From NCBI GenBank assembly GCA_017847725.1, contig JAGAXW010000052.1:1-36476 (forward strand): a stretch of 36,476 nucleotides of DNA, read 5' to 3'. The first letter of the stretch is position 1, and every line of letters starts with the position of its first letter. The notes under the pieces were generated by a model that was not told the origin of the DNA, did not search any database, and saw only the letters and a program-made list of their open reading frames with translations. A program made the position numbers and the translations under genes. Shown in pieces: positions 2,202-26,062 of this stretch. This stretch comes from Prevotella sp. (GTDB lineage Bacteria > Bacteroidota > Bacteroidia > Bacteroidales > Bacteroidaceae).

Positions 2202-4553
2202 ATGAAGAGTAATAATAGAGGACAAGGAACCCTCATTAAAGTCATTTCACTGGCCGTCGGCCTGACCGTCGGACTGGTGCTGATAGCCAAGGTGCAACTG
2301 GAGATGAACTACGACCGTTGCATCGTGGACAAGGAACATGTATATGAACTTTCAGAAACGTTTAAGAAGAAAGGTGAAGACAGCAAGGACTTCTCAAACA
2401 CACCGGGCGGTGCCATCACTGCGCTATGCCGATATATACCTGAGATAGAGGTGGGCACACGGTGGACCTACCAGTTTATGGATGAGAAACTCGTTCTGGA
2501 GGACGGCAGCCGATGGGCATTCTCCAATTCCGCGCTGGCCGACTCGTGCTTCTTCGACATTTTCGCCACACCCATCCTGCGCGGCGATGCTAAGGCCATC
2601 CTTTCCACTAAAGGGAAATGCCTGATCAGTCGCCGGCTGAATGAGCGCATGGGTGGCAACATGGTGGGACAGACGTTCTGCTACATGGCCCATCCAGACA
2701 AACCGATGATGATAGCAGGTGTTTTTGAGAACTACGATGAGAACTCGACGTTCAGTAGGCTGGACATCGTGATGTCTCTCTCCAGCATCGGTCTTTACTC
2801 TTTCGACGGCACCAGCCAACTGTTAGGCAACGACCGCTATCACTCTTACGTCAAGCTGCGTGCCGATACTGACATAAAGAAGGTGGAGCAGAAGATGGAC
2901 AAAATGCTGAAAGAACAACTGCCGTGGGAGGAACTGAAGGTGACTGGCATTGAGGACTTCCGCTTCGTGTTTAACCCTGTGAGTGAGAACCGCATGAAAA
3001 ACGAGACGGTTCGCACCACCTGTATTATCCTCGCCATCGTCGCTTTAGTGATGCTTTTCACGGCGGTGATGAACTATATCCTCGTGGTCATCAGTACGAT
3101 GGTAGCGCAGGCTCGACTTGTTGCCATCCGCAAGGTGCTGGGAGCGCCCAAAAGCGAGTCTTACCTGACAACGATGAGGGAGGCCGCTGCACTCCTGCTT
3201 GTGGCTTTGGCAGTCATGGCATTACTCCTTTGGACTGGGCAAGACTGGATTCGCGATTTGATAGGCGTCAGCGTTGCAACACTATTCTCCACACAGACCT
3301 GTCTGGTGTTGACATTGGTATGCGTCATTGTGCTCTTCTGCTGCGGTGTGCTGCCTGGCTATATCTACTCGCGCATCCCGATGGTCTATGCCTATCGGCT
3401 GTATTCAGAGAACAAACGCACGTGGAAACTATCACTGCTGGCCTTTCAGTTCATATTGAGCACCATGCTTCTGTGTATCCTCAGCACCATCTATCGGCAG
3501 TACGACTATATGATGAATCGCGACCTGGGCTATGAGTATAAGGACGTGGCCTATATAGAAATTCCCGAGCGCTCGGACTCCACCTATACCCTGGCCCGCG
3601 AGATTGAGAAACTGCCATGCGTCAAGTCCTCCTCAACCGCCTATTCACTTTTTCTGCAACACCAGAGCGGCAACAACGTGATGTTGCCAGGTAAGCCAGA
3701 GATGCTGTTCAACTTTGGATGCCTCTACTGGATAGAACCAAGCATCGTAGAGACTATGGGTCTCAAGGTTGTCCAAGGCAAGTTGCCCACACGGATAGAA
3801 CACCCTGGCTGGACTCTGGAGACGATTGTCGATGAGCGGTTTGCCAAGCAGCTGAAAGCTCACACCGGATGGGAGAGTGTAATCGGACAACGCATCGTCA
3901 GCACCGAATGGAACGATAAACTGGTCTTCACCATATCTGCAGTAGTCAAGGATTTCACACTTGGCACCCTTACCAATATCGAAGATCGCCCGGCTATGAT
4001 GTTCAACGGCAATATCTATGCCAAGTATATCCTTGTGCGGTTCCACGACCTCACACCTGAGAATCTCGCCAAGGTGCAACAACTCTGCGACCGCCTTTAT
4101 CCCAAAGCCGAATACTTGGTGAAACGCTATTCCAACGAGCTGGCCGACAGCTATCAAGAGACGAAGCACACCCGCGACCTGATTATGATAGGTTGCCTGG
4201 CATCGCTGCTGATTACGCTTATCGGACTCATCGGTTATGTGCGCGACGAGGTACAGCGCCGCTCGCGCGAACTGGCCATCCGCAAGGTGATGGGAGCCGG
4301 TGTCGGCGAACTGCAGGGGCTGTTTTTGCGGAGCATCGCAATGATTGCCCTGCCGTCCATCATCGTTGGTGTTGCCTTGGGTTGGTATTTCAGCCGTATG
4401 CTGATGGAACAGTTTGCCGAGAAGGTGACGCTCTCGTGGTACGTCTTTACCGGCTGTGCTCTGTTCGTGCTGCTCGTCATTGCTGCCATCGTGCTGCTCC
4501 AGACCTATCGCGTGGCAACCAGCAATCCCGTGAAGTATTTAAAGACGGAGTAA
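2202..4553 (+). CDS. FtsX/MacB-type ABC transporter permease (783 aa)
   Basis: Second large permease of the same operon. It has an N-terminal membrane anchor (about residues 10-30), a periplasmic core domain, an FtsX module with helices between about 265 and 385, a second anchor at about 405-430, a second periplasmic domain, and a C-terminal FtsX module with helices from about 660 to 770. It ends NPVKYLKTE, the typical tail of this Bacteroidetes family. The motif LAIRKVMGA before the last helices matches the equivalent IAIRKVMGS of the upstream permease, so the two are tandem paralogues. The duplicated architecture suggests a permease pair served by the ATPase at 4713. The family exports lipoproteins, antimicrobial peptides or cell-wall-active compounds; the substrate here is unknown. 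Confidence 0.92.
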   Translation: MKSNNRGQGTLIKVISLAVGLTVGLVLIAKVQLEMNYDRCIVDKEHVYELSETFKKKGEDSKDFSNTPGGAITALCRYIPEIEVGTRWTYQFMDEKLVLEDGSRWAFSNSALADSCFFDIFATPILRGDAKAILSTKGKCLISRRLNERMGGNMVGQTFCYMAHPDKPMMIAGVFENYDENSTFSRLDIVMSLSSIGLYSFDGTSQLLGNDRYHSYVKLRADTDIKKVEQKMDKMLKEQLPWEELKVTGIEDFRFVFNPVSENRMKNETVRTTCIILAIVALVMLFTAVMNYILVVISTMVAQARLVAIRKVLGAPKSESYLTTMREAAALLLVALAVMALLLWTGQDWIRDLIGVSVATLFSTQTCLVLTLVCVIVLFCCGVLPGYIYSRIPMVYAYRLYSENKRTWKLSLLAFQFILSTMLLCILSTIYRQYDYMMNRDLGYEYKDVAYIEIPERSDSTYTLAREIEKLPCVKSSSTAYSLFLQHQSGNNVMLPGKPEMLFNFGCLYWIEPSIVETMGLKVVQGKLPTRIEHPGWTLETIVDERFAKQLKAHTGWESVIGQRIVSTEWNDKLVFTISAVVKDFTLGTLTNIEDRPAMMFNGNIYAKYILVRFHDLTPENLAKVQQLCDRLYPKAEYLVKRYSNELADSYQETKHTRDLIMIGCLASLLITLIGLIGYVRDEVQRRSRELAIRKVMGAGVGELQGLFLRSIAMIALPSIIVGVALGWYFSRMLMEQFAEKVTLSWYVFTGCALFVLLVIAAIVLLQTYRVATSNPVKYLKTE

Positions 4554-4557
4554 AAGG

Positions 4558-4596
4558 ACCACCCCTTACCCCTCTCTGTGTGGGAGGGGAGTGGTT
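4558..4596 (+). repeat. Palindromic repeat copy 1 (orientation A), intergenic
   Basis: GC-rich palindromic unit (core CCCCTCTCTGTGTGGGAGGGG with one mismatched pair) immediately after the second permease stop. It is inverted relative to copy 2 at 4669, with about 72 bases between them. It may act as a hairpin between permease and ATPase genes. Confidence 0.75.
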
Positions 4597-4668
4597 ACCT
4601 TGCAAAACAAAACATTAATATAAACCATTTAGAAAAATGACCCTGAAAGCCTGCCAGCAGAACTATTT

Positions 4669-4706
4669 ACTCCCTCCCTCACAGGGAGGGGCTGGGGGTG
4701 GGTCTC
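4669..4706 (+). repeat. Palindromic repeat copy 2 (orientation B), abuts ATPase start
   Basis: CTCCCTCCCTCACAGGGAGG followed by GGCTGGGGGTGGGTC. It is the inverted partner of copy 1 and ends 6 bases before the likely ATG of the ABC ATPase, so it occupies the normal ribosome-binding position of that gene. Confidence 0.8.
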
Positions 4707-4712
4707 TTGATT

Positions 4713-5390
4713 ATGATTAAACTTGAAAACATTCAGAAGGTGTTCCGCACGGAAGAGGTGGAGACCGTAGCCCTGGGTGGCGTGTCGCTCGAAGTGAAGA
4801 AAGGTGAGTTCGTGGCCATCATGGGACCGTCGGGCTGTGGCAAGTCGACGCTGCTGAACATCCTGGGCCTGCTCGACAATCCTACCAGTGGCCGCTACTG
4901 GCTCGACGGACAGGAGGTTGGCACGTTGAAAGAAAGCCAGCGCACGGCTGTACGCAAAGGCCAGATCGGCTTCGTGTTCCAGAGTTTCAACCTAATTGAC
5001 GAGCTCAATGTCGAGGAGAACGTGGAACTGCCGCTGACCTACCTTGGTGTACCTAAGAAAGAGCGGAAGCAGCGCGTAGAAAAGGTGCTGCGCCGCATGG
5101 CCATCTCGCATCGTGCCCATCACTTCCCCCAGCAGCTCTCAGGCGGTCAGCAACAGCGCGTAGCCATTGCCCGTGCCGTGGTGATGAACCCGAAATTGAT
5201 CCTTGCCGACGAGCCGACAGGTAACCTCGACTCGAAGAACGGCCTGGAGGTAATGCATTTGCTCACTCAACTGAACCAAGAGGGCACCACCGTGCTGATG
5301 GTGACCCACTCGGAGCGCGATGCCGGCTATGCCCAGCGCGTGGTAAATATGCTCGACGGTATGCTGGTAGAGGGGAATACCGTTCTTTGA
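4713..5390 (+). CDS. ABC transporter ATP-binding protein, MacB/LolD type
   Basis: ATPase that powers the two FtsX permeases upstream. In a protein of about 225 residues it shows Walker A (GPSGCGKST), the Q-loop (FVFQSFNLI), the ABC signature (LSGGQQQR), Walker B with catalytic Glu ([13 protein letters not shown]) and the H-loop (VTHSERD), all intact. [13 protein letters not shown] after Walker A is typical of the LolD/MacB subgroup. The ATG at 4713 ([11 protein letters not shown]) is preferred over a GTG at 4698, because the sequence upstream belongs to a palindromic repeat and the family starts with this motif. No Shine-Dalgarno is seen because the repeat fills the leader. It converges with dapL 16 bases downstream. 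Confidence 0.95.
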
Positions 5391-5406
5391 GACTTTTTGT
5401 TGTGCG

Positions 5407-6645
5407 TCATTTCTTGCCTGCCCACTGAGCGATTCGCTGGAGTGCTTCTTCCGTCTGCTCGTGACTGCCAAAGGCGGTGAAGCGCACGTAGCCCTCGCCC
5501 GATGGACCGAAGCCCACGCCAGGGGTGCAGACCACATTGGCACCGTAGAGCAGGGCCTCGAAGAATTGCCACGAAGTAGTGCCGTCGGGCGTGCGCATCC
5601 AGATATAGGGGGCATTCTCGCCGCCGTAGCACTCGAAGCCGAGGCTCCTCAGTACCGACAGCATACGGGCGGCGTTCTCCATATAGTAGTCGATGGTGGC
5701 GCTGACCTGTTGCTTGCCCTCGGGCGAGTAGATGGCCTCGGCAGCGCGCTGCGAGATGTAGCTCGTGCCGTTGAACTTGGTGCACTGGCGGCGCAGCCAG
5801 AGCTGGTTGAGGGAGATGCGCTCGCCCTCGAAGGTGGCCACGCTGACCTCTTTCGGCACGATGGTGTAGCCGCAGCGGACACCCGTAAAGCCGGCCGTCT
5901 TGGAGAACGAGCGGAACTCCACGGCACACTTGCGGGCTCCGCGAATCTCGTAGATGCTGTGGGGAATCTCCGGGTCGCGGATATAGGCCTGATAGGCGGC
6001 GTCGAAGAGGATGAGGGCATCGTTCTTCAGCGCGTAGTTCACCCACTTGCGCAGTTCCGGCTTGGTGATGACGGTGCCCGTGGGATTGTTGGGGAAGCAG
6101 AGGTAGATGACATCCACCGGACGGCCCTTCGGCAGTTCAGGCACGAAACCGTTCTCGGCCGTGGTGGGCATATAGCGCACGTTGGTCCAGCGACCGTCGC
6201 GATAGGTGCCGCAGCGGCCTATCATCACGTTGGAGTCGATGTAGACGGGATAGATGGGGTCGGTGACGCCGATGAAGTTGTCCCAGTGGAGCAACTCCTG
6301 GAAGTTGCCGGTGTCGCTCTTCGCCCCGTCATTGATAAAGACCTCGTCGAGGCTGAGGCGCACGCCACGAGGCGCGAAGTCGTTCTTCAGGATGGCCTCG
6401 CGCAGGAAGTCGTAGCCCTGCTCGGGGCCGTAGCCTCGGAAGCCGTCGGCAGTGGCCATCTCGTCAACGGCCTTGTGCATGGCCTCGATGACGGCGGGAC
6501 AGAGCGGCTGGGTGACGTCGCCGATGCCAAGCGAGATGACGTCGGCCTTGGGGTGCATCACCTTGAAGGCATTGACCTTCTTGGCGATGTCGGCGAACAA
6601 GTAGTTCGCCTGCAGGTTCAGGAAGTGGATATTTACTAATGCCAT
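5407..6645 (-). CDS. dapL: LL-diaminopimelate aminotransferase
   Basis: PLP enzyme that converts tetrahydrodipicolinate plus glutamate directly to LL-diaminopimelate and 2-oxoglutarate. This is the short DAP route for lysine and peptidoglycan used by Bacteroidetes, among others. It has 412 residues, the normal family length. The N-terminal region ([15 protein letters not shown], then [11 protein letters not shown] near residues 66-77) is characteristic of DapL. The PLP lysine is K249 in [12 protein letters not shown], and FPNNPTGT at about 184-191 carries the cofactor-binding Asn/Pro. It is the last gene of the gltB-gltD-dapF-dapL run and follows dapF by 15 bases. GltBD makes the glutamate donor and DapF uses the product. 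Confidence 0.96.
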
Positions 6646-6660
6646 AATGTCGTAGTTTTG

Positions 6661-7575
6661 TTATTCCGGAATTTCTATTTCGCCATCGAAGACGAAGGTG
6701 GCAGGGCCAGTCATATAGACGTGGCGATTGCTTTCGCGCCACTCGATGTGCAGCGTGCCGCCGTCCATCACGATGTCACTCTCGCGACCGGCACGACCGC
6801 TGAGAAAGGCGGCCACGGCGGTGGCACAGGCCCCCGTGCCGCAGGCCATCGTAACACCGCTGCCGCGCTCCCAGACACGGGTGCGGATGGTGGCGCAGCC
6901 GTTCCCCTCCCTTGTAGGGGAGGGGTCGGGGGTGGGGTCAGTAATCTTTGCAAATTCGATGTTGCAGCGCTGTGGGAAGGCGGGATGACATTCGAGGATA
7001 CGCCCCGTCTCTGCCACCTGATCGATGTCGTCGGTGAAGATAACATAGTGGGGATTGCCCATCGAAACGAAAGACCCACCTCGCAGCCCCCGGTTGCCGA
7101 CAAACTGCGACGCGTCCTCCAAGACTGGCTCGCCCATGTCAACGGTGACGGAGGTTACAGACCCCACCCCCAGCCCCTCCCCTACAAGGGAGGGGAGCAG
7201 CTGCGCGTCCTTTTCGTGAGCGGGGCACGAAGGCGAAACATGCAGACTGAGCGTCTTGACCCCCGAAAGCGTCAGCAGACGGATTTCTGTCTTGTCCGCC
7301 AGGCCACGCTCATAGAGGTACTTGCCGATGCATCGGCTGGCATTGCCGCACATCATGGCCTCCGAGCCGTCGGCATTGAAGATGCGCATGGCGAAGTCGG
7401 CCTCGGGCACGGGCGAGCGGTCGATGACCACCAGCCCATCGCTGCCGATGCCCTTGTGGCGGTCGCTCCACGCGACAGCGCAGGCCTGAGGATGAGCTAT
7501 CGGGTGCTGCATCGCGTTGACGTAGATGTAGTCGTTGCCGCAGCCGTGCATCTTGGTGAAGGGAATCTTTTTCAT
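6661..7575 (-). CDS. dapF: Diaminopimelate epimerase carrying two in-frame palindromic-repeat insertions
   Basis: Epimerises LL-DAP to meso-DAP for lysine and peptidoglycan. Both catalytic cysteines are present: C76 in MMCGNASRC and C245 in ACGTGACAT. Length is 304 residues against about 270-280 usually; the excess is explained by two repeat-encoded peptides. One, at about residues 125-141, contains [15 protein letters not shown]. The other, at about 211-227, contains [14 protein letters not shown] and falls just before the conserved RVWERGSG strand. Both keep the frame, and the active site is intact, so the enzyme is presumably functional. Its ATG overlaps the gltD stop (ATGA), indicating translational coupling. 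Confidence 0.95.
6898..6945 (-). repeat. Palindromic repeat copy 3, inside dapF (orientation A on coding strand)
   Basis: On the coding strand it begins ATTACTGACCCCACC and ends AGGGAGGGGAACGGC. It is nearly identical, including flanks, to the intergenic copy at 20278. It is translated as [14 protein letters not shown] within DapF. Confidence 0.9.
7155..7197 (-). repeat. Palindromic repeat copy 4, inside dapF (orientation B on coding strand)
   Basis: Inverted partner of copy 3, about 210 bases away. On the coding strand it starts CTCCCCTCCCTTGTAGGGGA and runs into GGGGTCTGTAA. It is translated as [14 protein letters not shown]. The DapF sequence between the two copies is ordinary family sequence. 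Confidence 0.9.
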
Positions 7576-8960
7576 CTCGTCAGATATTCGTTTACTTTCT
7601 TGGCCGTCTCTATGCCGCTGGCCATGGCGCGGACCACGAGCGAGGCACCGCTGGCTGCATCGCCGCAGACGAAGACATTCTCAGGATACTGCGGATGCTC
7701 GGGCCTGAGAAAGCCCATCGCCAACAGGCAGAGCTCGGCCTTGATGACGAATGGCTCGCCCTTCGCCACCATGACGGGGCGAGAAGATACAGCCCCCACC
7801 CCTGCCCCCTCCCCTTGAGGGACGGGGAACTTCCAGTCTATCTCCTGCACCTTTACGCCTGTCAACTTACCGTCCTCGCCCAGGAACTCCAGCGTGTTGA
7901 TGTTCCAGCGGCGGGTGCAGCCCTCCTCGTGGCTCGACGTGGTCTTCAGCGTGCGCGGCCAGTTGGGCCACGGGTTCTGCGGGTCGTCGGGGCCCTCTAC
8001 GGGGCGAGGCATAATCTCTATCTGCGTCACACTGCGGCAGCCCTGGCGGTGGGCGGTGCCGATGCAATCGCTACCCGTATCGCCGCCACCGATGACGAGC
8101 ACATCCTTCCCCTTGGCCGTAATGCGCTCCTTTTCCGGAAACGCCATCCCGGCCAGCACGCGGTTCTGCTGCGAGAGCAGTTCGAGGGCGAGGTGCACGC
8201 CCTTCAGTTCGCGGCCGGGGATATTGAGGTCGCGGGCGCTGGGCGTGCCGGTGGCGATGACGACGGCGTCGGCCTGTCCCGTAGACTGCGGCAGTGCCGC
8301 AGTACACTCAACGTCCTCACCGTAACGGAAAGCGATGCCTTCCTGCTCCATCAGCCGGATGCGCCTGTCGATAATCGCCTTGTTGAGCTTGAAGTTTGGG
8401 ATGCCGTAGCGCAGCAGTCCGCCGGCGGCCTCGTTCTTCTCATACACCGTCACCGTATATCCCATCTGGTTGAGGGCATCGGCACAGGCCAGGCCGGCCG
8501 GACCGGCACCGATGACGGCGACGCGCTTCCCGCAGCGCCGGGCGGGCACCCGCGGCTGGATATACCCCTCGCGGAAGGCGGCCTCGATGATGGCGCACTC
8601 GTCCTCGCGGTTGGTCGTCGGCTCATGGTTGAAGCGGTTCAGCACGCAAGCCTTCTCGCACAGCGCCGGACAGATGCGGCCCGTGAACTCGGGGAAGGGA
8701 TTGGTGCTCGTCAGCAGACGGAAGGCCTGCTCCCACTCGCCCCGATACAGCGCGTCGTTCCACTCTGGCGCCTTGTTGCCCAGCGGACAGGCCCAGTGGC
8801 AGAAGGGCACGCCGCAGTCCATGCAGCGCGAGGCCTGCCGCTTGCGTTCGCGGGTGTTGAGCGTCTGCTCCACCTCGCCAAAGTCGTGGATGCGGTCGTG
8901 CACCGGACGGTAGCCCGCCTCCTGACGGTGTATCTCTAAAAATGCTTTCGGATTTCCCAT
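7572..8960 (-). CDS. gltD: Glutamate synthase small subunit
   Basis: NAD(P)H-oxidising beta subunit of GOGAT, which passes electrons through FAD and Fe-S clusters to GltB. It has 462 residues. N-terminal cysteines for two 4Fe-4S clusters are present (C46, C49, C54, C58 and C97, C101, C105). The FAD-binding [12 protein letters not shown] lies at about 145-156 and a second nucleotide-binding [12 protein letters not shown] at about 291-302. A short repeat-encoded peptide ([13 protein letters not shown], about residues 378-391) sits in a C-terminal loop before [10 protein letters not shown]. It lies 28 bases downstream of gltB and overlaps dapF by four bases. Confidence 0.96.
7788..7830 (-). repeat. 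Palindromic repeat copy 5, inside gltD (orientation B on coding strand)
   Basis: Degenerate copy (plus strand contains CCCCCTCCCCTTGAGGGACG) with the CCCCCACCCCTG flank. It is translated in GltD as [13 protein letters not shown]. No inverted partner was seen nearby. Confidence 0.8.
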
Positions 8961-8988
8961 TGTTTCTCTATACTATAAACTCTAAACG

Positions 8989-13758
<4,770 letters not shown>

Positions 13759-13799
13759 ATTATCCTTGTTTTATCTTTCTTTTGTCTCGATTTCGGATG

Positions 13800-13807
13800 C
13801 AAAGATA
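13800..13807 (-). promoter_or_regulatory. Bacteroidetes -7 box for gltB
   Basis: TATCTTTG on the minus strand, followed by C, matches the TAnnTTTG consensus. It lies about 42 bases upstream of the gltB ATG. A clear -33 TTTG at the usual distance is not obvious. Confidence 0.7.
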
Positions 13808-13861
13808 ATACAAAAGGATAGAAAAATAAGAGTATTTGTGTCAAAATATTTATTGCAATTC

Positions 13862-13887
13862 GTACACAACTATCATTTTGTACACAA
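13862..13887. promoter_or_regulatory. Direct repeat GTACACAA x2, candidate operator in the gltB/glnB spacer
   Basis: GTACACAA occurs at 13862-13869 and again at 13880-13887, 18 bases start to start. Both lie just upstream of the gltB promoter box in the 332-base spacer between divergent gltB and the P-II gene. The rest of that spacer is AT-rich with no convincing coding sequence. The operator role is inference from position. Confidence 0.4.
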
Positions 13888-14020
13888 AGAACCATATTTC
13901 GTGACAAGATGAAAAGAAAAAGCAGCCCGACGTCACCCGAATGTTTACAATTTGTCATCCCGCCTCATTTTGTTGGTACAAAGTTGTAAGTTTATGCGCC
14001 TTTTTCTCACTAATCCCCAT

Positions 14021-14028
14021 AACTTTGC
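14021..14028 (+). promoter_or_regulatory. Bacteroidetes -7 box for the glnB-amt operon
   Basis: TAACTTTG followed by CA lies 62 bases before the P-II start codon, giving a leader of roughly 55 bases. It matches TAnnTTTG; the -33 element is weak. Confidence 0.7.
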
Positions 14029-14090
14029 AGCCGTAATCTTGCAAGACGACACGAAAACTAAGTATTCACAATCTAAAAGAGGTAAAAAGT

Positions 14091-14438
14091 ATGAAAAGGA
14101 TTGAAGCCATCATCCGCAAGACCAAGTTCGAGGAGCTGAAGGATGCCCTGCTGCACTCGGACATCGACTGGTTTGAGTACCACGACGTTCACGGCATTGG
14201 GCAGAGCCGCCAGGAGCGCATCTACCGCGGCGTACAGTATTCCACCGACGTCATCGAGCGCGTAGCCATCACCATCGTCTGCCGCGACGTCATCATGCAG
14301 CCCACGGTCGACGTCATCCTACGGGTGGCGCAAACCGGACAAGTGGGCGACGGCCGCATCTTCGTGAGCGACGTCATCGACACGTGGAGCATCCGCACCG
14401 GCGAGCACGGCGACACGGTGCTAAGGGACAAGAAATAA
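14091..14438 (+). CDS. P-II family nitrogen regulator (GlnB/GlnK type)
   Basis: Small trimeric signal protein that senses 2-oxoglutarate and ATP/ADP and typically gates the neighbouring Amt channel. It has 115 residues. The fold is recognisable from MKRIEAIIRKTKFEELKDAL at the N-terminus, the T-loop (residues about 34-52) with IYRGVQY, and the nucleotide-binding VAQTGQVGDGRIFV and IRTGE segments. Y45 and Y50 align with Y46 and Y51 of E. coli GlnB, Y51 being the uridylylation site there. The T-loop sequence before them (HGIGQSRQER) differs from the enterobacterial GRQKGHTEL form, so modification cannot be assumed. The amt start follows 47 bases downstream, and linkage to amt favours a GlnK role. 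Confidence 0.93.
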   Translation: MKRIEAIIRKTKFEELKDALLHSDIDWFEYHDVHGIGQSRQERIYRGVQYSTDVIERVAITIVCRDVIMQPTVDVILRVAQTGQVGDGRIFVSDVIDTWSIRTGEHGDTVLRDKK

Positions 14439-14485
14439 GATCAATGCGCATGAATGAAATTAACGAATAAAAAAGAATAGAAATT

Positions 14486-15739
14486 ATGAACGAAATAGGA
14501 TTATCACTCGATACCGTATGGATGCTGCTGGCAGCCATGCTGGTTTTCTGGATGCAGCCAGGCTTCGCCCTCTGCGAGGCAGGCTTCACACGCTCGAAGA
14601 ACACGGCCAACATCCTGATGAAGAACTTCGTCGACTTCATGTTCGGCTCGCTCCTGTTTTTTTTCATCGGCTTCGGATTCATGTTCGGCTCCGAGGGCGC
14701 AGGCTTCATCGGTGCGCCCAACTGGGGCGACCTCTCCTTCTGGAAGGGCCAGCTGCCCGTAGAGGGCTTCCTGATTTTCGAGACCGTCTTCTGCGCCACC
14801 TCGGCCACCATCGTCAGCGGAGCCATGGCCGAGCGCACCAAGTTCTCGATGTACCTGGTCTACTCGGCCGTCATCTCGCTCTTCATCTACCCGATAGAGG
14901 GCCACTGGACGTGGGGCGGCGGATGGCTGTGCAACGCGGCTGAGGACTCATTTATGATGCAGACCTTCGGCACCGTGTTCCACGACTTCGCGGGCTCGGC
15001 CATCGTGCACAGTGTGGGCGGCGTGCTGGCCCTGGTGGGCGCCATCGCCCTCGGCCCGCGCCGCGGCAAGTACGGTGCCGACGGCAAGAGCCGCGCCATA
15101 CCCGGCCACAACCTGGCCATGGCCGCCCTGGGCGTCTTCATCCTCTGGATGGGATGGTTCGGCTTCAACCCCGGCTCGCAGCTCGCAGCCTCGGGCGAGG
15201 TCAACCGCACGGCCATCAGCCATGTCTTCCTCACCACCAACCTCGCCGCCGTGGCAGGCGGCACGGCCACCATGCTGCTTACCTATCTGAAGTATGGCAA
15301 GCCCTCGCTCTCGCTGACGCTCAACGGCGTGCTGGCCGGACTGGTGGGTATCACCGCCGGCTGCGACCTTGTCTCGCCCTTCGGAGCCGTCATCATCGGA
15401 CTCCTCTGCGGCATCGTATTGGTCTACGCCATCGAGTTCATCGACCACCGCCTGCACATCGACGACCCCGTGGGCGCCAGCAGCGTACACGGCGTATGCG
15501 GCATCCTCGGCACCCTCATGACCGGCCTGCTCTCCACGTCGACAGGCGCCTTCTACGGCCACGGCTGGGGATTCTTCTGCGCCCAGGCGTTCGGCATCTT
15601 CATCATCGACCTCTGGGCAGCCCTGTGCGGCATCGCCCTCTTCTACGGCATCAAGCGACTGCACGGTCTGCGCGTCGACGACCGCATAGAGGACGAGGGC
15701 CTCGACATCTACGAGCATGGCGAGAGTTGCTACAACTGA
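14486..15739 (+). CDS. amt: Ammonium transporter (Amt/MEP/Rh family)
   Basis: Inner-membrane ammonium channel of 417 residues with about 11 hydrophobic segments starting at residue 10. The twin pore histidines are H175 (SAIVHSVGG) and H335 (SSVHGVCGILG), equivalent to H168 and H318 of E. coli AmtB. HWTWGGGWL at about 140-148 and the Amt signature around residues 166-181 are intact. It sits between the P-II gene and an outer-membrane barrel gene, with 13 bases to the next start, forming a three-gene ammonium uptake and sensing operon divergent from gltBD. Confidence 0.97.
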   Translation: MNEIGLSLDTVWMLLAAMLVFWMQPGFALCEAGFTRSKNTANILMKNFVDFMFGSLLFFFIGFGFMFGSEGAGFIGAPNWGDLSFWKGQLPVEGFLIFETVFCATSATIVSGAMAERTKFSMYLVYSAVISLFIYPIEGHWTWGGGWLCNAAEDSFMMQTFGTVFHDFAGSAIVHSVGGVLALVGAIALGPRRGKYGADGKSRAIPGHNLAMAALGVFILWMGWFGFNPGSQLAASGEVNRTAISHVFLTTNLAAVAGGTATMLLTYLKYGKPSLSLTLNGVLAGLVGITAGCDLVSPFGAVIIGLLCGIVLVYAIEFIDHRLHIDDPVGASSVHGVCGILGTLMTGLLSTSTGAFYGHGWGFFCAQAFGIFIIDLWAALCGIALFYGIKRLHGLRVDDRIEDEGLDIYEHGESCYN

Positions 15740-15752
15740 AAAGATTAAAGGT

Positions 15753-16478
15753 ATGAAAAAGATGGTTTTATTTGCAATGGGACTGGTGCTCAGCAGCACC
15801 GCCCTTGCACAGGACAAGGTGGACCTTACCCTCAAGGCCGATTTCGTGAACGAATACATCTGGCGTGGCCTGAAGCTGGGCGACGTAGCCGTGCAACCGA
15901 CATTCGGCGTAGGCTACAAAGGTCTGTCGCTAACCGCCTGGGGCTCCTACGGACTGTCGAACAAGGACGACGTGAAGGAGTTCGACCTCACCATCGGCTA
16001 CACCACGGGCGGTCTGAATATCGGCATCACCGACTACTGGTTCTCTGAGGGCCTCGACCCCGACGGCCGCTACTTCAAGTACGGCGCCCACGGCACCAAC
16101 CACCTGTTCGAGGCCAACATCGGTTACGACTTCAGCAGTTTGAGGGGATTTGCAATCCCCGTCGTCCTGCAGTGGTACACCAACTTCGCCGGCAACGACG
16201 GCACCAACAAGAGCGGCAAGCGGGCCTACAGTAGCTACTTCGAGGCCAGCGTCCCCTTCCGCCTCGCCACCGTCGACTGGACTGCCACGGTCGGTGCCGT
16301 TCCTTACGCTACGACCACATACGGCACCAGCGGTTTCGCCGTCACCAACCTCTCGCTGCGGGCCACGAAGGACATCCGCGTGACCGACTCGTTCTCCATC
16401 CCCGTCTTCGGACAACTGACGGGCAACCCTTGTTCGCAGAAAGCATACCTGGTTCTCGGTTTCACGCTGCAGCCTTAA
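15753..16478 (+). CDS. Putative outer-membrane beta-barrel protein (TorF-like) linked to amt
   Basis: About 241 residues starting at the ATG at 15753, chosen because it opens a clear signal peptide (MKKMVLFAMGLVLSSTALAQ) while the upstream in-frame ATG overlaps amt. The mature part consists of alternating short strands with many Gly, Tyr, Trp and Thr residues (NEYIWRGLKLGDVAVQPTFG, LSLTAWGSYGLSN) and ends in a strand-like LVLGFTLQP, as in outer-membrane barrels. It resembles the TIGR02001/TorF porin-like family from remembered features. Position after amt suggests a role in outer-membrane passage of ammonium or small nitrogen compounds; this is inference. Confidence 0.7.
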   Translation: MKKMVLFAMGLVLSSTALAQDKVDLTLKADFVNEYIWRGLKLGDVAVQPTFGVGYKGLSLTAWGSYGLSNKDDVKEFDLTIGYTTGGLNIGITDYWFSEGLDPDGRYFKYGAHGTNHLFEANIGYDFSSLRGFAIPVVLQWYTNFAGNDGTNKSGKRAYSSYFEASVPFRLATVDWTATVGAVPYATTTYGTSGFAVTNLSLRATKDIRVTDSFSIPVFGQLTGNPCSQKAYLVLGFTLQP

Positions 16479-16494
16479 TCTTCACCAGGTATCC

Positions 16495-16531
16495 TTCCCC
16501 TCTTCCGCCGCTGAAGGCGGGAGAGGGGAAT
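16495..16531 (+). terminator. GC-rich hairpin (palindromic repeat relative, copy 10) after the amt operon
   Basis: CCCCTCTTCCGCC and GGCGGGAGAGGGG can pair (one mismatch) around a GCTGAA loop, 18 bases after the barrel-gene stop, followed by ATTTCTTCTG. It probably ends the glnB-amt transcript. Composition is like the dispersed repeat family, but the loop differs. The rest of 16532-16760 shows no supportable gene. Confidence 0.6.
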
Positions 16532-16765
16532 TTCTTCTGTCCTTGGCCGAGCCTTCCGACCGTATTCCGTAGGCGAGCAGCCCTTGAGCGTGCTTCTTCA
16601 CCGCACAAGCATAAAGCAACAAATCGTTACGACTTCGGCTGTTTTTAGAGCAAAAGGAAAGGAAAACGCGGAGACCATGCGGTCAACACTTTACAAAATG
16701 TCAGTTTGAAGGCGATTTAACATTCAAAAGTCTGTCGGAAGCGGACGGAATTGGTGGAAAGTGCA

Positions 16766-16773
16766 TATCTTTG
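16766..16773 (+). promoter_or_regulatory. Bacteroidetes -7 box for pyrG
   Basis: TATCTTTG followed by CA lies 24 bases before the pyrG ATG, implying a leader of about 17 bases. No good -33 element was identified. Confidence 0.7.
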
Positions 16774-16797
16774 CAGTCCATAAAATAGATTCGTTTT

Positions 16798-18435
16798 ATG
16801 GATACAAAGTATATTTTCGTCACGGGCGGTGTCGTTTCCTCGTTGGGAAAGGGCATCATCTCCGCCTCCATCGGCAAGCTGCTGCAGGCGCGCGGTTACA
16901 AGGTGACCATCCAGAAGTTCGACCCCTACATCAATATCGACCCGGGGACGCTGAACCCCTACGAGCACGGCGAGTGCTACGTGACGGAGGACGGTTTCGA
17001 GACCGACCTCGACCTGGGCCACTACGAGCGGTTCACCGGCATCCGCACCACGCGCGACAACTCTGTCACCACCGGGCGCATCTACAAGACCGTCATCGAC
17101 CGCGAGCGCCACGGCGACTACCTGGGCAAGACCATCCAGGTGGTGCCGCACATCACCGACGAGATAAAAAGGAGGATGCTGGGTTCCCAAGGGAGAGGGG
17201 CTTTCATTATCTGCGAAATCGGCGGCACCATTGGCGACATCGAGAGTGCACCGTTCATGGAGGCCATCCGACAGTTGCGGTGGGAGCTGGGACGTAACGC
17301 GGTGTGCGTGCATCTGACCTACGTGCCCTACCTGAAGGCTGCCGACGAACTGAAGACGAAGCCGACGCAACATAGCGTAAAGGAACTGCAGGGGATGGGC
17401 ATACAGCCCGACATCCTCGTGCTGCGCACCGAGCGCCACCTCGACGACACCATGCGCCTGAAGGTGGCGTCGTTCTGTAATGTCGACCTGGAGTGCGTGG
17501 TGCAGAGCGAGGACATGCCGAGCATCTACGAGGTGCCGGTCAGCATGCAGCGGCAGGGACTCGACGCGGCTATCCTGCGGAAGATGGGCATCCCCGTGGG
17601 CGAGACACCGGCCATGAAGCCGTGGCACACATTCCTGGACATGCAGCGCAACGCCACCACCGAGGTGCATATCGCACTCGTGGGCAAATACGACCTGCAG
17701 GATGCCTACAAGAGCATCCGCGAGAGCCTGAACCTGGCGGGTATATATAATAAGGTGAAGGCACGGCTGCACTTCGTCAACAGCGAGGAGGTGACGACGG
17801 AGAATGTCGCCAAGCAATTAGAGGGCATGGCGGGCGTCGTCATCTGTCCGGGCTTCGGCCAGCGGGGCATCGAGGGCAAGATTGTGGCTGCCGAATATTG
17901 CCGGACGCACGACGTGCCGACCTTCGGCATCTGTCTCGGTATGCAGATGATGGTCATCGAGTTTGCGCGGAATGTGCTGGGCTATCCCGATGCCAACAGC
18001 AGCGAGATGTCGGCAGAGACGCAGCACCCCGTCATCGACTTGATGGAGGAGCAGAAGAACGTCACCAATATGGGCGGCACGATGCGACTCGGGGCTTACG
18101 ACTGCCAACTCCGCGAGGGCAGCCGCGCCGCAGCAGCTTATGCGGCGACAGGACTGTCTACTCCCCGCCCTACAAGGAAGGGACTGGGGGAGGGTCTGCT
18201 TATCCGCGAGCGTCACCGCCACCGCTATGAGTTCAACAATCAGTATAAGGAGGACTACGAGGCGGCGGGCATGCACTGCGTGGGCATCAATCCCGCTGCC
18301 GACCTGGTGGAGATTGTCGAGATACCGACCCTGCGGTGGTACATCGGCACACAGTTCCACCCCGAATACGCATCGACGGTGCTCCATCCGCATCCGCTGT
18401 TTATGAGTTTCGTCAAGGTTTGTATAAATGTTTAA
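16798..18435 (+). CDS. pyrG: CTP synthase with one in-frame repeat insertion
   Basis: Makes CTP from UTP, ATP and glutamine. It has 545 residues. The N-terminal synthetase domain has GGVVSSLGKGI (residues 11-21) and the conserved DPYINIDPGTLNP. The C-terminal class I amidotransferase has the nucleophile Cys in FGICLGMQ (about residue 380) and the HPE motif in TQFHPEYAS (about 521). Before the invariant ERHRHRYEFNN there is a repeat-encoded stretch (LSTPRPTRKGLGEGL, about residues 455-470) absent from usual CTP synthases, inside a lid-proximal loop. Another short GSQGRGA at about 128 replaces the more usual acidic loop. It is the first of three clustered amidotransferase genes. Confidence 0.97.
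   Translation: MDTKYIFVTGGVVSSLGKGIISASIGKLLQARGYKVTIQKFDPYINIDPGTLNPYEHGECYVTEDGFETDLDLGHYERFTGIRTTRDNSVTTGRIYKTVIDRERHGDYLGKTIQVVPHITDEIKRRMLGSQGRGAFIICEIGGTIGDIESAPFMEAIRQLRWELGRNAVCVHLTYVPYLKAADELKTKPTQHSVKELQGMGIQPDILVLRTERHLDDTMRLKVASFCNVDLECVVQSEDMPSIYEVPVSMQRQGLDAAILRKMGIPVGETPAMKPWHTFLDMQRNATTEVHIALVGKYDLQDAYKSIRESLNLAGIYNKVKARLHFVNSEEVTTENVAKQLEGMAGVVICPGFGQRGIEGKIVAAEYCRTHDVPTFGICLGMQMMVIEFARNVLGYPDANSSEMSAETQHPVIDLMEEQKNVTNMGGTMRLGAYDCQLREGSRAAAAYAATGLSTPRPTRKGLGEGLLIRERHRHRYEFNNQYKEDYEAAGMHCVGINPAADLVEIVEIPTLRWYIGTQFHPEYASTVLHPHPLFMSFVKVCINV
18155..18203 (+). repeat. Palindromic repeat copy 11, inside pyrG (orientation B)
   Basis: CTACTCCCCGCCCTACAAGG then AAGGGACTGGGGGAGGGTCTGC. 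It is a somewhat degraded copy, translated as STPRPTRKGLGEGL. No inverted partner is evident in pyrG. Confidence 0.85.
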
Positions 18436-18466
18436 AAAGGTATGATAAGATTAGTAAAACAGTATA

Positions 18467-20275
18467 ATGGAACAGCTGAAGCATGAGTGCGGCGTGGCGA
18501 TGATTCGCCTGCTGAAGCCGCTGGACTATTACGAACGGAAGTACGGCACGTGGGCGTGGGGCTTCAACAAGCTCTACCTGATGATGGAGAAGCAGCACAA
18601 CCGCGGGCAGGAAGGCGCAGGCTTCGCCTCCGTCAGCCTGACCAACAAGCCTGGCACGGAGTATATGTTTCGCGAGAAGGCGGAGGGCAAGGACGCCATC
18701 ACCGAGATTTTTTCACGCGTCACCGAGGCCATGAAGGGCGAACTGCTGATGGGCCACCTGCGCTACTCGACCACCGGCAAGAGCGGGCTGACATTCGTGC
18801 ATCCCTTCCTGCGCCGCAACAACTGGAGGGCGAAGAACCTCTGCCTCTGCGGCAACTTCAACATGACCAATATCGACGAGGTCTTTTCTTTCCTGACCAG
18901 TCAGGGGCAGTCGCCGCGCATCTACGGCGACTCGTATATCACGCTCGAACTGATGGGGCACCGGCTGGACCGCGAGGTGGAGCGGCTCTATGCCGAGGCC
19001 AAGGCGCAGGGACTGGAGGGCACGGCCGTCACCGACTATATCGACAGTCACGTGGAGATGGCCAACGTGCTGAAGACGACGATGAGCCACTACGACGGCG
19101 GCTACGTGATGTGCGGACTGACGGGCTCGGGCGAGATGTTCGCCGTGCGCGACCCGTGGGGCATCCGCCCGGCGTTCTACTATCGTGACGATGAGGTTAT
19201 CGCCGTGGCCAGCGAGCGCCCGGTGCTACAGACGACTTTCAATATCGACACTGCCGACGTGCAGGAGCTGCTGCCCGGGCAGGCGCTCATCGTGCATAAG
19301 GACGGAAAGATACAGACCCCACCCCTAACCCCTCCCCTTGAAGGGAGGGGAGGAGCAGGGTCATCAGCCTGCTCCTTCGAGCGCATTTACTTCAGCCGGG
19401 GCTCCGACCGCAACATCTACCGCGAGCGCAAACGGTTGGGCGAACAACTGACTCCCGCCATCATGCGGGCCATCAATAATGACGTAGCCAACACAGTCTT
19501 TTCATATATACCCAACACGGCCGAGGTAGCCTTCTACGGCATGACTGACGGCATCCGCAAAAGCCTCCCCTACGGGGGGAGGTTGGAGGGGGCCGACGTC
19601 CGCATCGAAAAGGTCGTGTGGAAGGACATCAAGCTCCGCACCTTTATCTCCGACAGTGCGGAGCGCAACGACTTGGCGGCCCATGTCTACGACATCACTT
19701 ACGGTTCGCTGCGCCCCTACGAGGATAATCTGGTCATCATCGACGACTCCATCGTTCGTGGCACCACGCTCCGCGAGAGCATCTTCAAAATTCTCGACCG
19801 CCTGCACCCCAAGAAGATTGTCATGGTCAGCTCGTCGCCGCAGATTCGCTACCCCGATTACTACGGCATCGACATGTCGCGACTCGAAGAGCTCTGCGCC
19901 TTCCGTGCCGCCATCGAACTGATCAAGGAGCAGACCCACCCCCGGGAGGGTCTGATTGCTGATGTATACTGGAAGTGCAAGAACGAGCCATTGGCGGCCA
20001 ATCACGTGCGTGCCATCTATGCCCCCTTCACGGTGGAGGAGATCAACAAGAAGATTGTCGAGATGCTGCGCCCCGACGGCATGGAGGCTCCCGTCGAACT
20101 GGTGTTCCAGAGCATCGAGGGCTTGCACACGGCATGCCCCCACCATCCGGGCGACTGGTATTTCACGGGGCACTACCCTACCCCTGGCGGCATCCGTCTG
20201 GTCAATCAGGCCTTCGTCCGCTATGTAGAGAATGTATTAAGTAATGATTTTAAAAAACTTGGCACAAATGAATAG
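18467..20275 (+). CDS. purF: Amidophosphoribosyltransferase, long Bacteroidetes form, with repeat-derived segments
   Basis: Glutamine PRPP amidotransferase type, the first step of purine synthesis. The N-terminal Ntn-hydrolase nucleophile is C8 (HECGVAMI) after a seven-residue propeptide, with EKQHNRGQEGAG matching the class II amidotransferase. The PRPP-binding loop VIIDDSIVRGTT lies at about 422-434. It has 602 residues against about 500 for E. coli PurF. As I remember it, the Bacteroides homologue is also long (about 630). Here three variable loops are replaced by repeat-like peptides: TPPLTPPLEGRGGAG at about 285-299, SLPYGGRLEGAD at about 366-377, and THPREGL at about 488-494. Whether it is the housekeeping PurF or a second paralogue cannot be decided from this window. 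Confidence 0.88.
   Translation: MEQLKHECGVAMIRLLKPLDYYERKYGTWAWGFNKLYLMMEKQHNRGQEGAGFASVSLTNKPGTEYMFREKAEGKDAITEIFSRVTEAMKGELLMGHLRYSTTGKSGLTFVHPFLRRNNWRAKNLCLCGNFNMTNIDEVFSFLTSQGQSPRIYGDSYITLELMGHRLDREVERLYAEAKAQGLEGTAVTDYIDSHVEMANVLKTTMSHYDGGYVMCGLTGSGEMFAVRDPWGIRPAFYYRDDEVIAVASERPVLQTTFNIDTADVQELLPGQALIVHKDGKIQTPPLTPPLEGRGGAGSSACSFERIYFSRGSDRNIYRERKRLGEQLTPAIMRAINNDVANTVFSYIPNTAEVAFYGMTDGIRKSLPYGGRLEGADVRIEKVVWKDIKLRTFISDSAERNDLAAHVYDITYGSLRPYEDNLVIIDDSIVRGTTLRESIFKILDRLHPKKIVMVSSSPQIRYPDYYGIDMSRLEELCAFRAAIELIKEQTHPREGLIADVYWKCKNEPLAANHVRAIYAPFTVEEINKKIVEMLRPDGMEAPVELVFQSIEGLHTACPHHPGDWYFTGHYPTPGGIRLVNQAFVRYVENVLSNDFKKLGTNE
19312..19355 (+). repeat. Palindromic repeat copy 12, inside purF (orientation A)
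   Basis: ACAGACCCCACCCCTAACCC followed by CTCCCCTTGAAGGGAGGGGAGG. It is translated as TPPLTPPLEGRGGAG just before the conserved SFERIYFSRGSD block. Confidence 0.88.
19563..19593 (+). repeat. Palindromic repeat copy 13, inside purF (orientation B, degenerate)
   Basis: CTCCCCTACGGGGGGAGGTT then GGAGGGGG. It is shorter and more degraded than others and is translated as LPYGGRLEGA. A vestige with the same GGGAGG character (ACCCACCCCCGGGAGGGTCT) is also present at 19934-19953. Confidence 0.65.
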
Positions 20276-20277
20276 AG

Positions 20278-20402
20278 TAACTGACCCTACCCCCAACCCC
20301 TCCCCTACAAGGGAGGGGAACGGCCATCGCCTTGCCCACCACGGGTATTCCGCAGGCACTCCCCTCCCTTGTAGGGGAGGGGTTGGGGGTGGGGTCAGTA
20401 AT
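20278..20402. repeat. Palindromic repeat copies 14 and 15, inverted pair between purF and asnB
   Basis: Left arm at 20278-20322 (AACTGACCCTACCCCC...) and right arm at 20359-20402 (...GGGGTTGGGGGTGGGGTCAG) are near-perfect inverted copies of about 43 bases separated by 36 bases. Each arm also folds on its own (CCCCTCCCCTACAAGGGAGG). This is the cleanest example of the paired form and could form a very strong hairpin in the purF-asnB transcript. The left flank (GGGGAACGGC) equals that of the copy within dapF. Confidence 0.92.
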
Positions 20403-20468
20403 AGAAATCATACCAAGGTATTTTTTTACGTTCACTAAAGAAGCAATTATAAAAAGAAAGGAAATATT

Positions 20469-25600: not shown

Positions 25601-25720
25601 CTATAATGGGAGATGATACAGACGTGGCGAACCAAAAACATAGTTTCACACGTTTCTCGTTAGGTGTCAATAGCATACATCTATGTATGAAACTACATTT
25701 TTTTTCATCGAACTCATGTA
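25601..25720 (+). repeat. 115-bp direct repeat, copy 1
   Basis: About 85% identical to 25947-26062 by eye. Both contain CCAAAAACATAGTTTCACAC near the left and CATCTATGTATGAAACTACA near the right. The arms TAGTTTCAcAC and GTaTGAAACTA can pair, so each copy may fold as a hairpin. There is also an inner near-palindrome CATACATCTATGTATG. The element is noncoding as far as can be seen. Confidence 0.8.
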
Positions 25721-25808
25721 AGTATGGTGCCAATGTGGCGACAACCGTCGTGTCGCGCCCTTTCGCACTTTTAACTCCCCAATCACTCGTAATTTCAAAA
25801 ATATTTCG

Positions 25809-25816
25809 TAACTTTG
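25809..25816 (+). promoter_or_regulatory. Orphan Bacteroidetes -7 box
   Basis: TAACTTTG followed by CAACC reads to the right, between the two 115-bp repeats, but no convincing gene follows before the lipoprotein gene, which is on the other strand. It may drive a small RNA or be a remnant of a lost gene. Confidence 0.35.
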
Positions 25817-25946
25817 CAACCGTAAGGCTGCGAAACTGCTCACACTCGGCAATTGATGCAAGCATCATTGCTCTCGCTTAACCGCAGTTTTAAGTCATCA
25901 TCGACAAAAGTAGTCTTATTGCCTAAGACTTACTTCGAACTCACGT

Positions 25947-26062
25947 TATTATGGGAATCATACAGACGTGACGATCCAAAAACATAGTTTCACACGCTTC
26001 TCGTTAAATATCAACGACATACATCTATGTATGAAACTACATTTTTTCATTGAACTCACGTT
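25947..26062 (+). repeat. 115-bp direct repeat, copy 2
   Basis: Second copy, same orientation as 25601. A 13-base sequence GAACTCACGTTAT occurs at 25937-25949 and again at 26052-26064, bounding this copy. That is what an insertion target duplication or tandem-repeat junction would leave. No gene is seen in 25086-26172. Confidence 0.8.

What the first reader, a model, noticed from the sequence alone, without database searches (positions are those of the whole stretch)
4558..20402. Family of GC-rich palindromic repeats inserted in frame into housekeeping enzymes
About 16 related copies lie between 4.5 and 20.4 kb. Eleven are inside dapF, gltD, gltB, pyrG and purF, all in frame and all translated. 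One orientation yields (T/D)P(R/T)P(L/D)P..REG type peptides and the other [12 protein letters not shown] or PTREGPGEG type. The host proteins keep their catalytic residues and are longer than usual by about the repeat length. Rickettsia palindromic elements are the known precedent for coding repeats. I do not know of a described equivalent here, but cannot exclude one. Both strands must avoid stop codons in the used frame, and the element seems built for this.
Basis: partly seen in the sequence, partly recalled or inferred. Interest (0 to 1): 0.8.

Follow-up and report, generated by a model that had tools for sequence, protein, structure and literature searches.

The report
Triplex-forming repeats encoded inside essential enzymes
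Short palindromic DNA repeats, of a type that in E. coli lies only between genes, have in this rumen Prevotella lineage spread into the coding parts of many enzymes, often as mirror-image pairs and nearly always without breaking the protein reading frame.

Summary
The repeats are real: 13 copies (not about 16) lie at 4554-20397, nine (not eleven) in frame inside dapF, gltD, gltB, pyrG and purF. Nearly all congeners or solved homologues compared lack the inserts in DapF, GltB, GltD and PyrG; PurF is less clear. Each copy is a hairpin plus a third purine-rich arm that mirrors, and covaries with, the hairpin's purine arm: the BoxC/PIT/TM "intrastrand triplex" design, reported as always intergenic in E. 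coli. In one 99% complete congener I counted 178 copies. Most neighbours form inverted pairs of two kinds: tail-in pairs, outside genes, like most E. coli pairs; and head-in pairs (29 or 31 nt spacer), about half inside genes, where arms and spacer are read as a roughly 40-residue linker (PriA, GMP synthase, pyruvate formate-lyase, an Era-like GTPase). Of 49 units with coding on both sides on one strand, 45 are open through. RAYT transposases do not track copy number. In gltB, arms use eight sites, each with one polarity, around native segments; partner arms share subtype, suggesting template-switch copying. Frame retention looks like selection, not design. New variant of a known kind; translation is not shown.

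The parts
4554..4597 (-). TM-type arm outside genes, left member of a head-in pair (strand = strand on which hairpin then G-rich third arm read 5'-3')
   Evidence: nhmmer; triplex parse (7/8 pairs, 6/8 triads)
4664..4706 (+). TM-type arm outside genes, right member of the head-in pair (66-nt gap)
6661..7575 (-). dapF (304 aa) with two in-frame arms
   Evidence: Pfam PF01678; PDB homologues; congeners
6900..6940 (+). arm in dapF, read as [14 protein letters not shown]
7158..7200 (-). arm in dapF, read within the insert [13 protein letters not shown], absent from 29 of 29 congeneric DapF aligned
7572..8960 (-). gltD (462 aa) with one in-frame arm
   Evidence: Pfam; PDB homologues; congener alignment
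7792..7828 (-). arm in gltD, read as [15 protein letters not shown]
8989..13758 (-). gltB (1589 aa) with four in-frame arms forming two head-in pairs around native segments
   Evidence: Pfam; congener alignments; PDB
11649..11693 (-). arm in gltB (site about 618 of the reference), read as ELSTPLSTGEGPGERL
11846..11888 (+). arm in gltB (site about 576), partner of 11649-11693, read as LPRPLSRREGSDYSQ
13143..13184 (-). arm in gltB (site about 168), read as VPTPLPTREGPGEG
13265..13308 (+). arm in gltB (site about 142), partner of 13143-13184, read as TLPRPLPCREGSDYLQ
16798..18435 (+). pyrG (545 aa) with one in-frame arm
   Evidence: Pfam; 16-residue gap in the solved homologue
18157..18198 (+). 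arm in pyrG, read as STPRPTRKGLGEG; a decayed copy
18467..20275 (+). purF-like gene (602 aa) with one in-frame arm
19313..19353 (-). arm in purF, read as TPPLTPPLEGRGGAG; insertion less clear-cut against PDB homologues
20282..20321 (-). arm outside genes after purF, left member of a -/+ pair (35-nt gap)
20357..20397 (+). arm outside genes before the next ORF (20469), right member of the pair

Best explanation
A dispersed, mobile repeat family of BoxC/TM type. The unit arm is a class II intrastrand triplex motif: pyrimidine arm, loop, purine arm, 2-4 (mostly 3) nt, then a third arm mirroring the purine arm. Arms amplify as inverted dimers of about 110-120 bp. Tail-in dimers stay outside genes. 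Head-in dimers (29/31-nt spacer) insert in genes and persist where they add an open, hydrophilic linker of roughly 35-40 residues to a tolerant place; frame-breaking insertions are removed. In gltB and pyrG the two arms flank native sequence at fixed sites; I infer that replication template-switching at the hairpin copied one arm to the other side and keeps the partners alike. Shown: architecture, covariation, pairing, in-frame excess, absence from most homologues, near-identical units at different loci. Inferred: triplex in DNA, mobility mechanism, template switching, translation of the inserts.
For: Third arm mirrors purine arm: purine-arm position 2 versus third-arm position 7 is G/G 127, A/A 34, G/A 19, A/G 1 in 181 unique arms; mean triad matches 7.72 of 8 against 7.25 (max 7.36 of 2000 shuffles) when third arms are dealt anew. 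In G059 (178 copies in 65 loci), adjacent pairs within 300 nt are -/+ 50, +/- 14, ++ 7, -- 3; all 14 +/- pairs are outside coding-like ORFs (11 with 25-27 nt gaps), while -/+ pairs are 26 coding, 7 half, 17 noncoding. Pooled with eight other genomes: -/+ 44 coding, 11 half, 27 non; +/- 2 coding (neither compact: gaps 217 and 284), 16 non; Fisher p 2.5e-5. Partner arms share subtype in 76 of 81 pairs against a shuffle mean of 55, max 66 of 500 shuffles. Of 49 G059 units with coding on both sides on one strand, 45 are open through (42 by script, 3 by my reading of its output). Twenty scanned hosts all carry Pfam domains, among them PriA, RNB, GMP synthase, PFL (two units), Era-like, Mur ligase-alanine racemase, CCA-adding-like, GH92, GH94. 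Two units 97.5% identical at two loci with largely different flanks. gltB: 60 arms in 18 of 53 loci at eight sites, one polarity per site, alternating; 22 of 23 pairs agree in subtype though subtype differs between species at three of four site pairs. Template switching homogenises inverted-repeat arms and was studied in genes (PMC8604942, start of abstract in the listing).
Against: The mobiliser is unknown: RAYT (PF01797) presence does not track copy number (Spearman 0.17, p 0.18; 10 of 26 genomes with at least 10 copies have none). No target-site duplication was recognised by eye. The TM paper did not find stable triplex in vivo by footprinting (passage). Outer-arm length modulo 3 is not constant. 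Within-locus L-R identity in gltB exceeds between-locus L-L at three of four site pairs, not at 768/840, and between-locus R-R is higher at 576/618 and 1173/1230, so concerted evolution is only moderately supported. Subtype sharing could also come from insertion as ready-made pairs. In the named loci one compact tail-in pair (28 nt) does lie in a coding-like ORF. Head-in pairs are not confined to genes. Relatedness of copies inflates the covariation test, and the parser maximises triad matches. Coding calls rest on a codon-usage rule, with a looser threshold for open-through units than for the others; most relatives are unnamed draft genomes or MAGs.
Confidence: 0.7

Rival explanations
1. Classical RAYT-mobilised REP/REPIN elements that happen to land in genes; in-frame copies are survivors.
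For: Palindromic repeats in inverted dimers; REPs in ORFs and in-frame REPs inside subclass 2.4 tnpAREP genes are described (PMC3733652, PMC6006769); a Y1_Tnp gene exists in the genome.
Against: None of the 13 window copies has GT[AG]G just 5' of the hairpin; GTAG stands in the loop of 4 (by inspection). The copies have a third arm.
Confidence: 0.15
2. The head-in dimer is a coding-adapted mobile element: polarity and spacer are selected so that insertion in sense orientation yields a benign linker.
For: In the 31-nt family of G059, 13 of 14 coding units have the same spacer polarity relative to the gene; 5.3 antisense would be expected from open frames, P(<=1) 0.0096. The used frame is more hydrophilic in 39 of 52 comparisons with other open frames of the same units. 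Units with spacers of 29-31 nt in G059: 19 coding, 5 half, 5 noncoding.
Against: Open-frame excess is small (2.5 against 1.7 of 6); outer length is not a multiple of three; purifying selection on random insertions could give the same bias; polarity was assigned by me from the printed units and open-frame counts were retyped.
Confidence: 0.25
3. The inserts are selected because they work, for example as DNA or mRNA structures that time replication or translation, or as functional linkers in the enzymes.
For: Same gltB sites and polarity in many species and subtype agreement of partners; striking density in the gltB-gltD-dapF-pyrG-purF block.
Against: 35 of 53 gltB loci have no arm at the threshold used; hosts are of many unrelated functions; patchy presence between relatives; no effect could be measured here.
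Confidence: 0.12
4. Assembly or binning artefact.
For: Window lies in a fragmented draft genome (56 contigs, 80.6% complete, 2.6% contamination).
Against: Same gltB sites recur in other assemblies, including the single-contig genome G364 (locus L284); two-contig genomes G262 and G298 hold 24 and 35 copies; reading frames are kept.
Confidence: 0.02

Closest known systems
BoxC / PIT / TM intrastrand triplex motif (E. coli TMECO; PMC4666352)
   Same: Pyrimidine arm, short loop, purine arm, 3-nt second loop, mirrored third arm; inverted pairs. By the coordinates of the paper's Table 1 (my reading), four of five E. coli pairs are tail-in with 16-27 nt gaps, like the 25-27-nt tail-in pairs outside genes here.
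   Different: E. coli copies are always intergenic (paper's statement); here many are in frame in genes, mostly as head-in pairs or single arms. None of 265 arms matches the E. coli consensus exactly (3-8 mismatches in 24 specified positions; shuffled arms 8-15).
Rickettsia palindromic elements (RPE)
   Same: Palindromic repeats inserted in frame in many unrelated genes (as cited in PMC3733652; otherwise recalled).
   Different: Different organism; RPE sequences were not compared and a third arm was not looked for in them.
Intragenic REPs and REP dimers (Opitutus terrae, Rickettsia conorii and others; PMC3733652)
   Same: Repeats, more than half dimers or groups, in ORFs, adding 20-30 residues; one case of about the same site in related recB genes.
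   Different: Those carry GTAG or CGTC tags; here no GT[AG]G foot was seen, the arm has a third strand, and dimers differ by orientation between genic and non-genic places.
REPs inside subclass 2.4 tnpAREP genes (PMC6006769)
   Same: In-frame insertion of palindromic repeats, subclass common in Bacteroidetes.
   Different: Described there for the transposase genes, with GT[AG]G feet; here in housekeeping genes and without relation to Y1_Tnp presence.

Membership tests
BoxC/PIT/TM intrastrand triplex motifs | Hairpin plus third purine-rich arm mirroring the purine arm (class II) | tested here: met
   254 of 265 arms have at least 7 of 8 hairpin pairs; 257 of 265 have at least 7 of 8 triads; linker 3 nt in 214 of 265
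BoxC/PIT/TM intrastrand triplex motifs | E. coli consensus CCCTCNCCC N3-6 GGGNGAGGG N3 GGGNGAGGG | tested here: not met
   0 of 265 arms match exactly; best 3 mismatches. So it works like TM, but is not filed as the E. coli subtype
BoxC/PIT/TM intrastrand triplex motifs | Intergenic location (E. coli) | tested here: not met
   9 of 13 window copies and 77 of 178 G059 copies lie in coding-like ORFs
BoxC/PIT/TM intrastrand triplex motifs | Forms a triplex in vitro | not testable with these tools
   CD/NMR needed
RAYT-associated REP / REPIN | 5' GT[AG]G foot | tested here: not met
   0 of 13 window copies have it just 5' of the hairpin; GTAG stands in the loop of 4, and several arms have CTACT on the 5' side (by inspection)
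RAYT-associated REP / REPIN | Cognate RAYT (Y1_Tnp) in the genome | tested here: not met
   No correlation over 60 genomes; 10 of 26 copy-rich genomes without Y1_Tnp at E <= 0.001
RAYT-associated REP / REPIN | Inverted dimers | tested here: met
   64 of 74 adjacent pairs in G059 are inverted
Rickettsia palindromic elements | In-frame insertion in many unrelated genes | tested here: met
Rickettsia palindromic elements | Sequence relationship to RPE families | not tested
   RPE sequences were not fetched or compared

The most novel reading that the evidence does not exclude
Rumen Prevotella carry a distinct class of mobile element, a head-in dimer of intrastrand-triplex arms, that lives in coding sequence: it enters genes in sense polarity, adds a disordered linker, and propagates locally by template switching that copies an arm across native gene segments and keeps partners alike.
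Probability: 0.3. Interest if true: 0.82.

Novelty: new variant of a known kind. Interest (0 to 1): 0.66.

Why it matters
It links two separate curiosities: BoxC/TM triplex repeats, reported as strictly intergenic in E. coli, and protein-coding palindromes, best known from Rickettsia. It offers dozens of natural cases, many in enzymes with solved homologues, of how DNA repeats add peptide linkers to proteins. The gltB series across species is a test bed for template-switch mutation in coding DNA. It also warns annotators that PLPxREG, TPLPxREG or YSPPSQGGAGGG peptides in Prevotella proteins are element-derived.

Tried and rejected
RAYT as mobiliser: no correlation. Fixed in-frame unit length: rejected. 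Special openness of the element: only slight. Independent random insertion of single arms in gltB: disfavoured by fixed site polarity. Rfam: no match at gathering scores in 4000-21000. A loose regular-expression scan missed copies and was replaced by profiles. One early GltB alignment mixed strands and was redone. The probability for 'all sense' printed is circular (sense was defined as the gene strand) and is not used. Structure prediction of DapF (alignment A2) was not possible.

Literature: in eight searches on repeats I saw no paper on these repeats in Prevotella genes; listings were cut and most subscription papers are not held, so this is no proof of absence. A ninth search was on template switching. 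PMC4666352: abstract, passages, sections 15 and 18. PMC3733652: passages and section 15. PMC6006769: passages. PMC8604942 and PMC8794818: listing with start of abstract only. Rickettsia RPE papers: recalled and as cited in PMC3733652 (not held).

Rows left out or biased: in G059 the scan scored only 150 candidates (149 matches); loci of four listed copies (C37:27781, C42:13969, C43:294, C43:7836) were not fetched. The loci were chosen because they held strong hits or pairs, so fractions and the pooled figures are biased; G059 is the less biased set. Searches used one draw of 60 congeners. The gltB set is 53 loci: 30 (own included) plus 23 new ones, best-scoring matches only; gltB arms were taken at E <= 0.01, decayed copies are missed, and the eight sites were set from the data. 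The 44 coding pairs include pairs in orthologous gltB genes.
Full report
What was checked. The finding claims about 16 GC-rich palindromic repeats between 4.5 and 20.4 kb, eleven of them in frame in housekeeping enzymes. Profile search finds 13 copies (with a profile made from those copies; refined coordinates). Nine are inside open reading frames of dapF, gltD, gltB (four), pyrG and purF; four are outside. Pfam confirms DapF, GltB and CTP synthase and gives oxidoreductase and Fer4_20 domains for GltD, which matches solved glutamate synthase small chains; the purF-like protein has only glutamine-amidotransferase domain hits in Pfam but matches solved PurF chains. The core pattern has 23 matches in the genome, at 21 places, and none for its reversed control. 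With the covariance model R1 there are 25 distinct places at E <= 5e-4, 13 of them in this 16 kb. So the density here is exceptional even for its own genome.

The inserts are insertions. DapF: all 29 congeneric sequences aligned lack the insert at about residues 115-137 of the window protein (a few have some extra residues) and show no element-like sequence at the second site, though several have other loop lengths there; PDB homologues also lack them. GltB: most element-free congeners read straight through at the four sites, for example KQIFVTGVTD-DKVSAFERTLYI where the window has a TLPRPLPCREGSDY-bearing insert; the solved GltB lacks the first two and leaves residues 626-697 unaligned. GltD: of 31 other rows 29 lack the stretch; L085 and L003 have extra residues there. 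PyrG: a 16-residue gap in the solved homologue around STPRPTRKGLGEG. PurF: only one congener row and a distant PDB alignment, so less secure. DapF residues C76 and C245, which I take from memory to be the catalytic cysteines, are invariant in the alignment; catalytic residues of the other hosts were not tested.

What the repeat is. Each arm is pyrimidine arm, loop, purine arm, mostly a 3-nt linker, then a second purine-rich arm. That last arm is the mirror image of the purine arm, with G over G and A or T over A, as in a purine-motif intrastrand triplex. Of 265 arms from nine genomes, 254 have at least 7 of 8 hairpin pairs, and in 181 unique arms the purine arm and the third arm vary together (G/G 127, A/A 34, G/A 19, A/G 1). 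A third arm that is not Watson-Crick paired has no reason to covary in a plain hairpin. A search of papers for motif strings found one paper: the BoxC/PIT/TM motif, shown there to form a triplex in vitro, not confirmed in vivo by footprinting, and said to be always intergenic in E. coli K-12 (PMC4666352). The E. coli consensus itself is not matched: 3-8 mismatches at 24 positions, against 8-15 for shuffled arms. I therefore say it works and is built like TM, without filing it as the E. coli subtype.

Distribution. Of 60 congeners, 40 have matches at E <= 1e-6, up to 104, with candidate caps. In the family 16 of 101 genomes and 8 of 30 genera match at E <= 1e-9; in the order, the own genome and one other of 149. 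Presence of Y1_Tnp transposases does not follow copy number.

Pairs. In the relative G059 (99% complete) I fetched 65 loci around the best 149 matches, less four, and found 178 copies. Adjacent copies within 300 nt are inverted in 64 of 74 cases. Tail-in pairs (third arms inside): 14 of 14 outside coding-like ORFs, 11 of them with 25-27 nt gaps. Head-in pairs: 26 in one coding frame, 7 with one arm in a coding frame, 17 noncoding, with spacers of 31 and 29 nt dominant. In the E. coli table of PMC4666352 four of the five pairs are tail-in by their coordinates (my reading). So the tail-in dimer outside genes is the familiar BoxC form, and the genic head-in dimer is the new form. Pooled over nine genomes the difference has p 2.5e-5, with the caution that the other loci were picked for strong hits; the two tail-in 'coding' pairs there are not compact (dapF of the window, gap 217, and neighbours of two units in L043, gap 284). 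In the 120 named loci, which partly overlap the unnamed set, 80 of 84 inverted pairs are head-in (33 coding, 13 half, 34 noncoding); of the four tail-in pairs two are in coding-like ORFs, one of them compact, which goes against a strict rule.

Coding units. Forty-four head-in pairs lie in one coding frame. They read, for example, THPQPLPVREGSDY-spacer-VSTPLPHREGQGVG or THPQPLPKGRGADSSAVDKSDGKSIYSPPSREGQGEG. Twenty of the host ORFs were scanned and all have Pfam hits: among them PriA, an RNB ribonuclease, GMP synthase, pyruvate formate-lyase with two units, an Era-like GTPase, a Mur ligase-alanine racemase fusion, a CCA-adding-type enzyme, a radical-SAM protein, an ABC exporter and glycoside hydrolases. 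In G059, of 113 units, 42 are open through in one ORF by script and three more on reading; four others have coding on both sides on the same strand but are not open through (one of these, L185, is plainly between genes); 37 have no coding flank, 25 one, one has opposite strands and one is at an edge. The script's threshold was looser for the open-through class. One in three would be expected from frame alone.

Is the element designed for coding? Not clearly. Compact coding pairs have 2.5 of 6 frames open, shuffles 1.7, noncoding pairs 2.1, and outer length modulo 3 is not constant. Two hints point the other way: the used frame is more hydrophilic than other open frames in 39 of 52 comparisons, and 13 of 14 coding units of the 31-nt family have the same polarity, 5.3 antisense being expected (P 0.0096; polarity assigned by eye).

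gltB as a natural experiment. Over 53 gltB loci of the genus, 18 carry arms, 60 in all, at eight sites only. Every site has one polarity and the sites alternate: L142, R168, L576, R618, L768, R840, L1173, R1230. The L-R pairs flank native protein segments. In 22 of 23 pairs the two arms share the A or G subtype, although at three of four site pairs the subtype differs between species. Within-locus identity of L and R exceeds between-locus L-L at three of four site pairs, but between-locus R-R is higher at two of the four. Old insertions plus copying between partner arms fit best. Template switching between inverted-repeat arms is known to homogenise them (PMC8604942) and to create and maintain hairpins (PMC8794818; both seen only as listing and start of abstract). 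An insertion in one arm of an imperfect inverted repeat copied to the other would give the head-in partner around native sequence. This step is inference.

Verdict. The repeat is a Prevotella branch of the BoxC/TM-type family that has colonised coding sequence, largely as head-in dimers, with reading frames kept by selection. Intragenic palindromic repeats are known; I saw no description of this combination of triplex architecture, orientation split between genic and other dimers, and fixed-polarity sites in the eight searches named under Tried and rejected. Translation of the inserts, the mobilising enzyme and any benefit remain open.

Noticed in passing
L190:2475-2662; L184; L220 (G059): Outer third arms are often tandemly repeated outward (for example SQGGAGGGSFLSSQGGAGGGSFLSSQGGAGGGS in L190), as if by slippage at the triplex motif.
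   Followed up: no
L014 / L058 (G050 gltB): gltB matches fall in two different frames near a lone arm at the first site: either a frameshifting insertion or an assembly error.
   Followed up: no
window 4500-20400: GC is 59% here against 48-49% on either side within the window; other element-bearing loci of the genome are 52-60%.
   Followed up: partly
L132:6000-6116 (Sphingomonas): A tail-in pair of the same motif outside coding-like ORFs in an alphaproteobacterium, arranged like most E. coli pairs.
   Followed up: no
window 25613-26047: Two 91-nt repeats, 89% alike and starting 344 nt apart, in a lower-GC stretch, unrelated to the triplex repeats.
   Followed up: no
L001:1105-1896 (own genome, contig C41): The only Y1_Tnp gene found in the genome, a 263-aa RAYT-like protein; by eye there is a GC-rich palindrome near the locus start (about L001:40-70).
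   Followed up: partly
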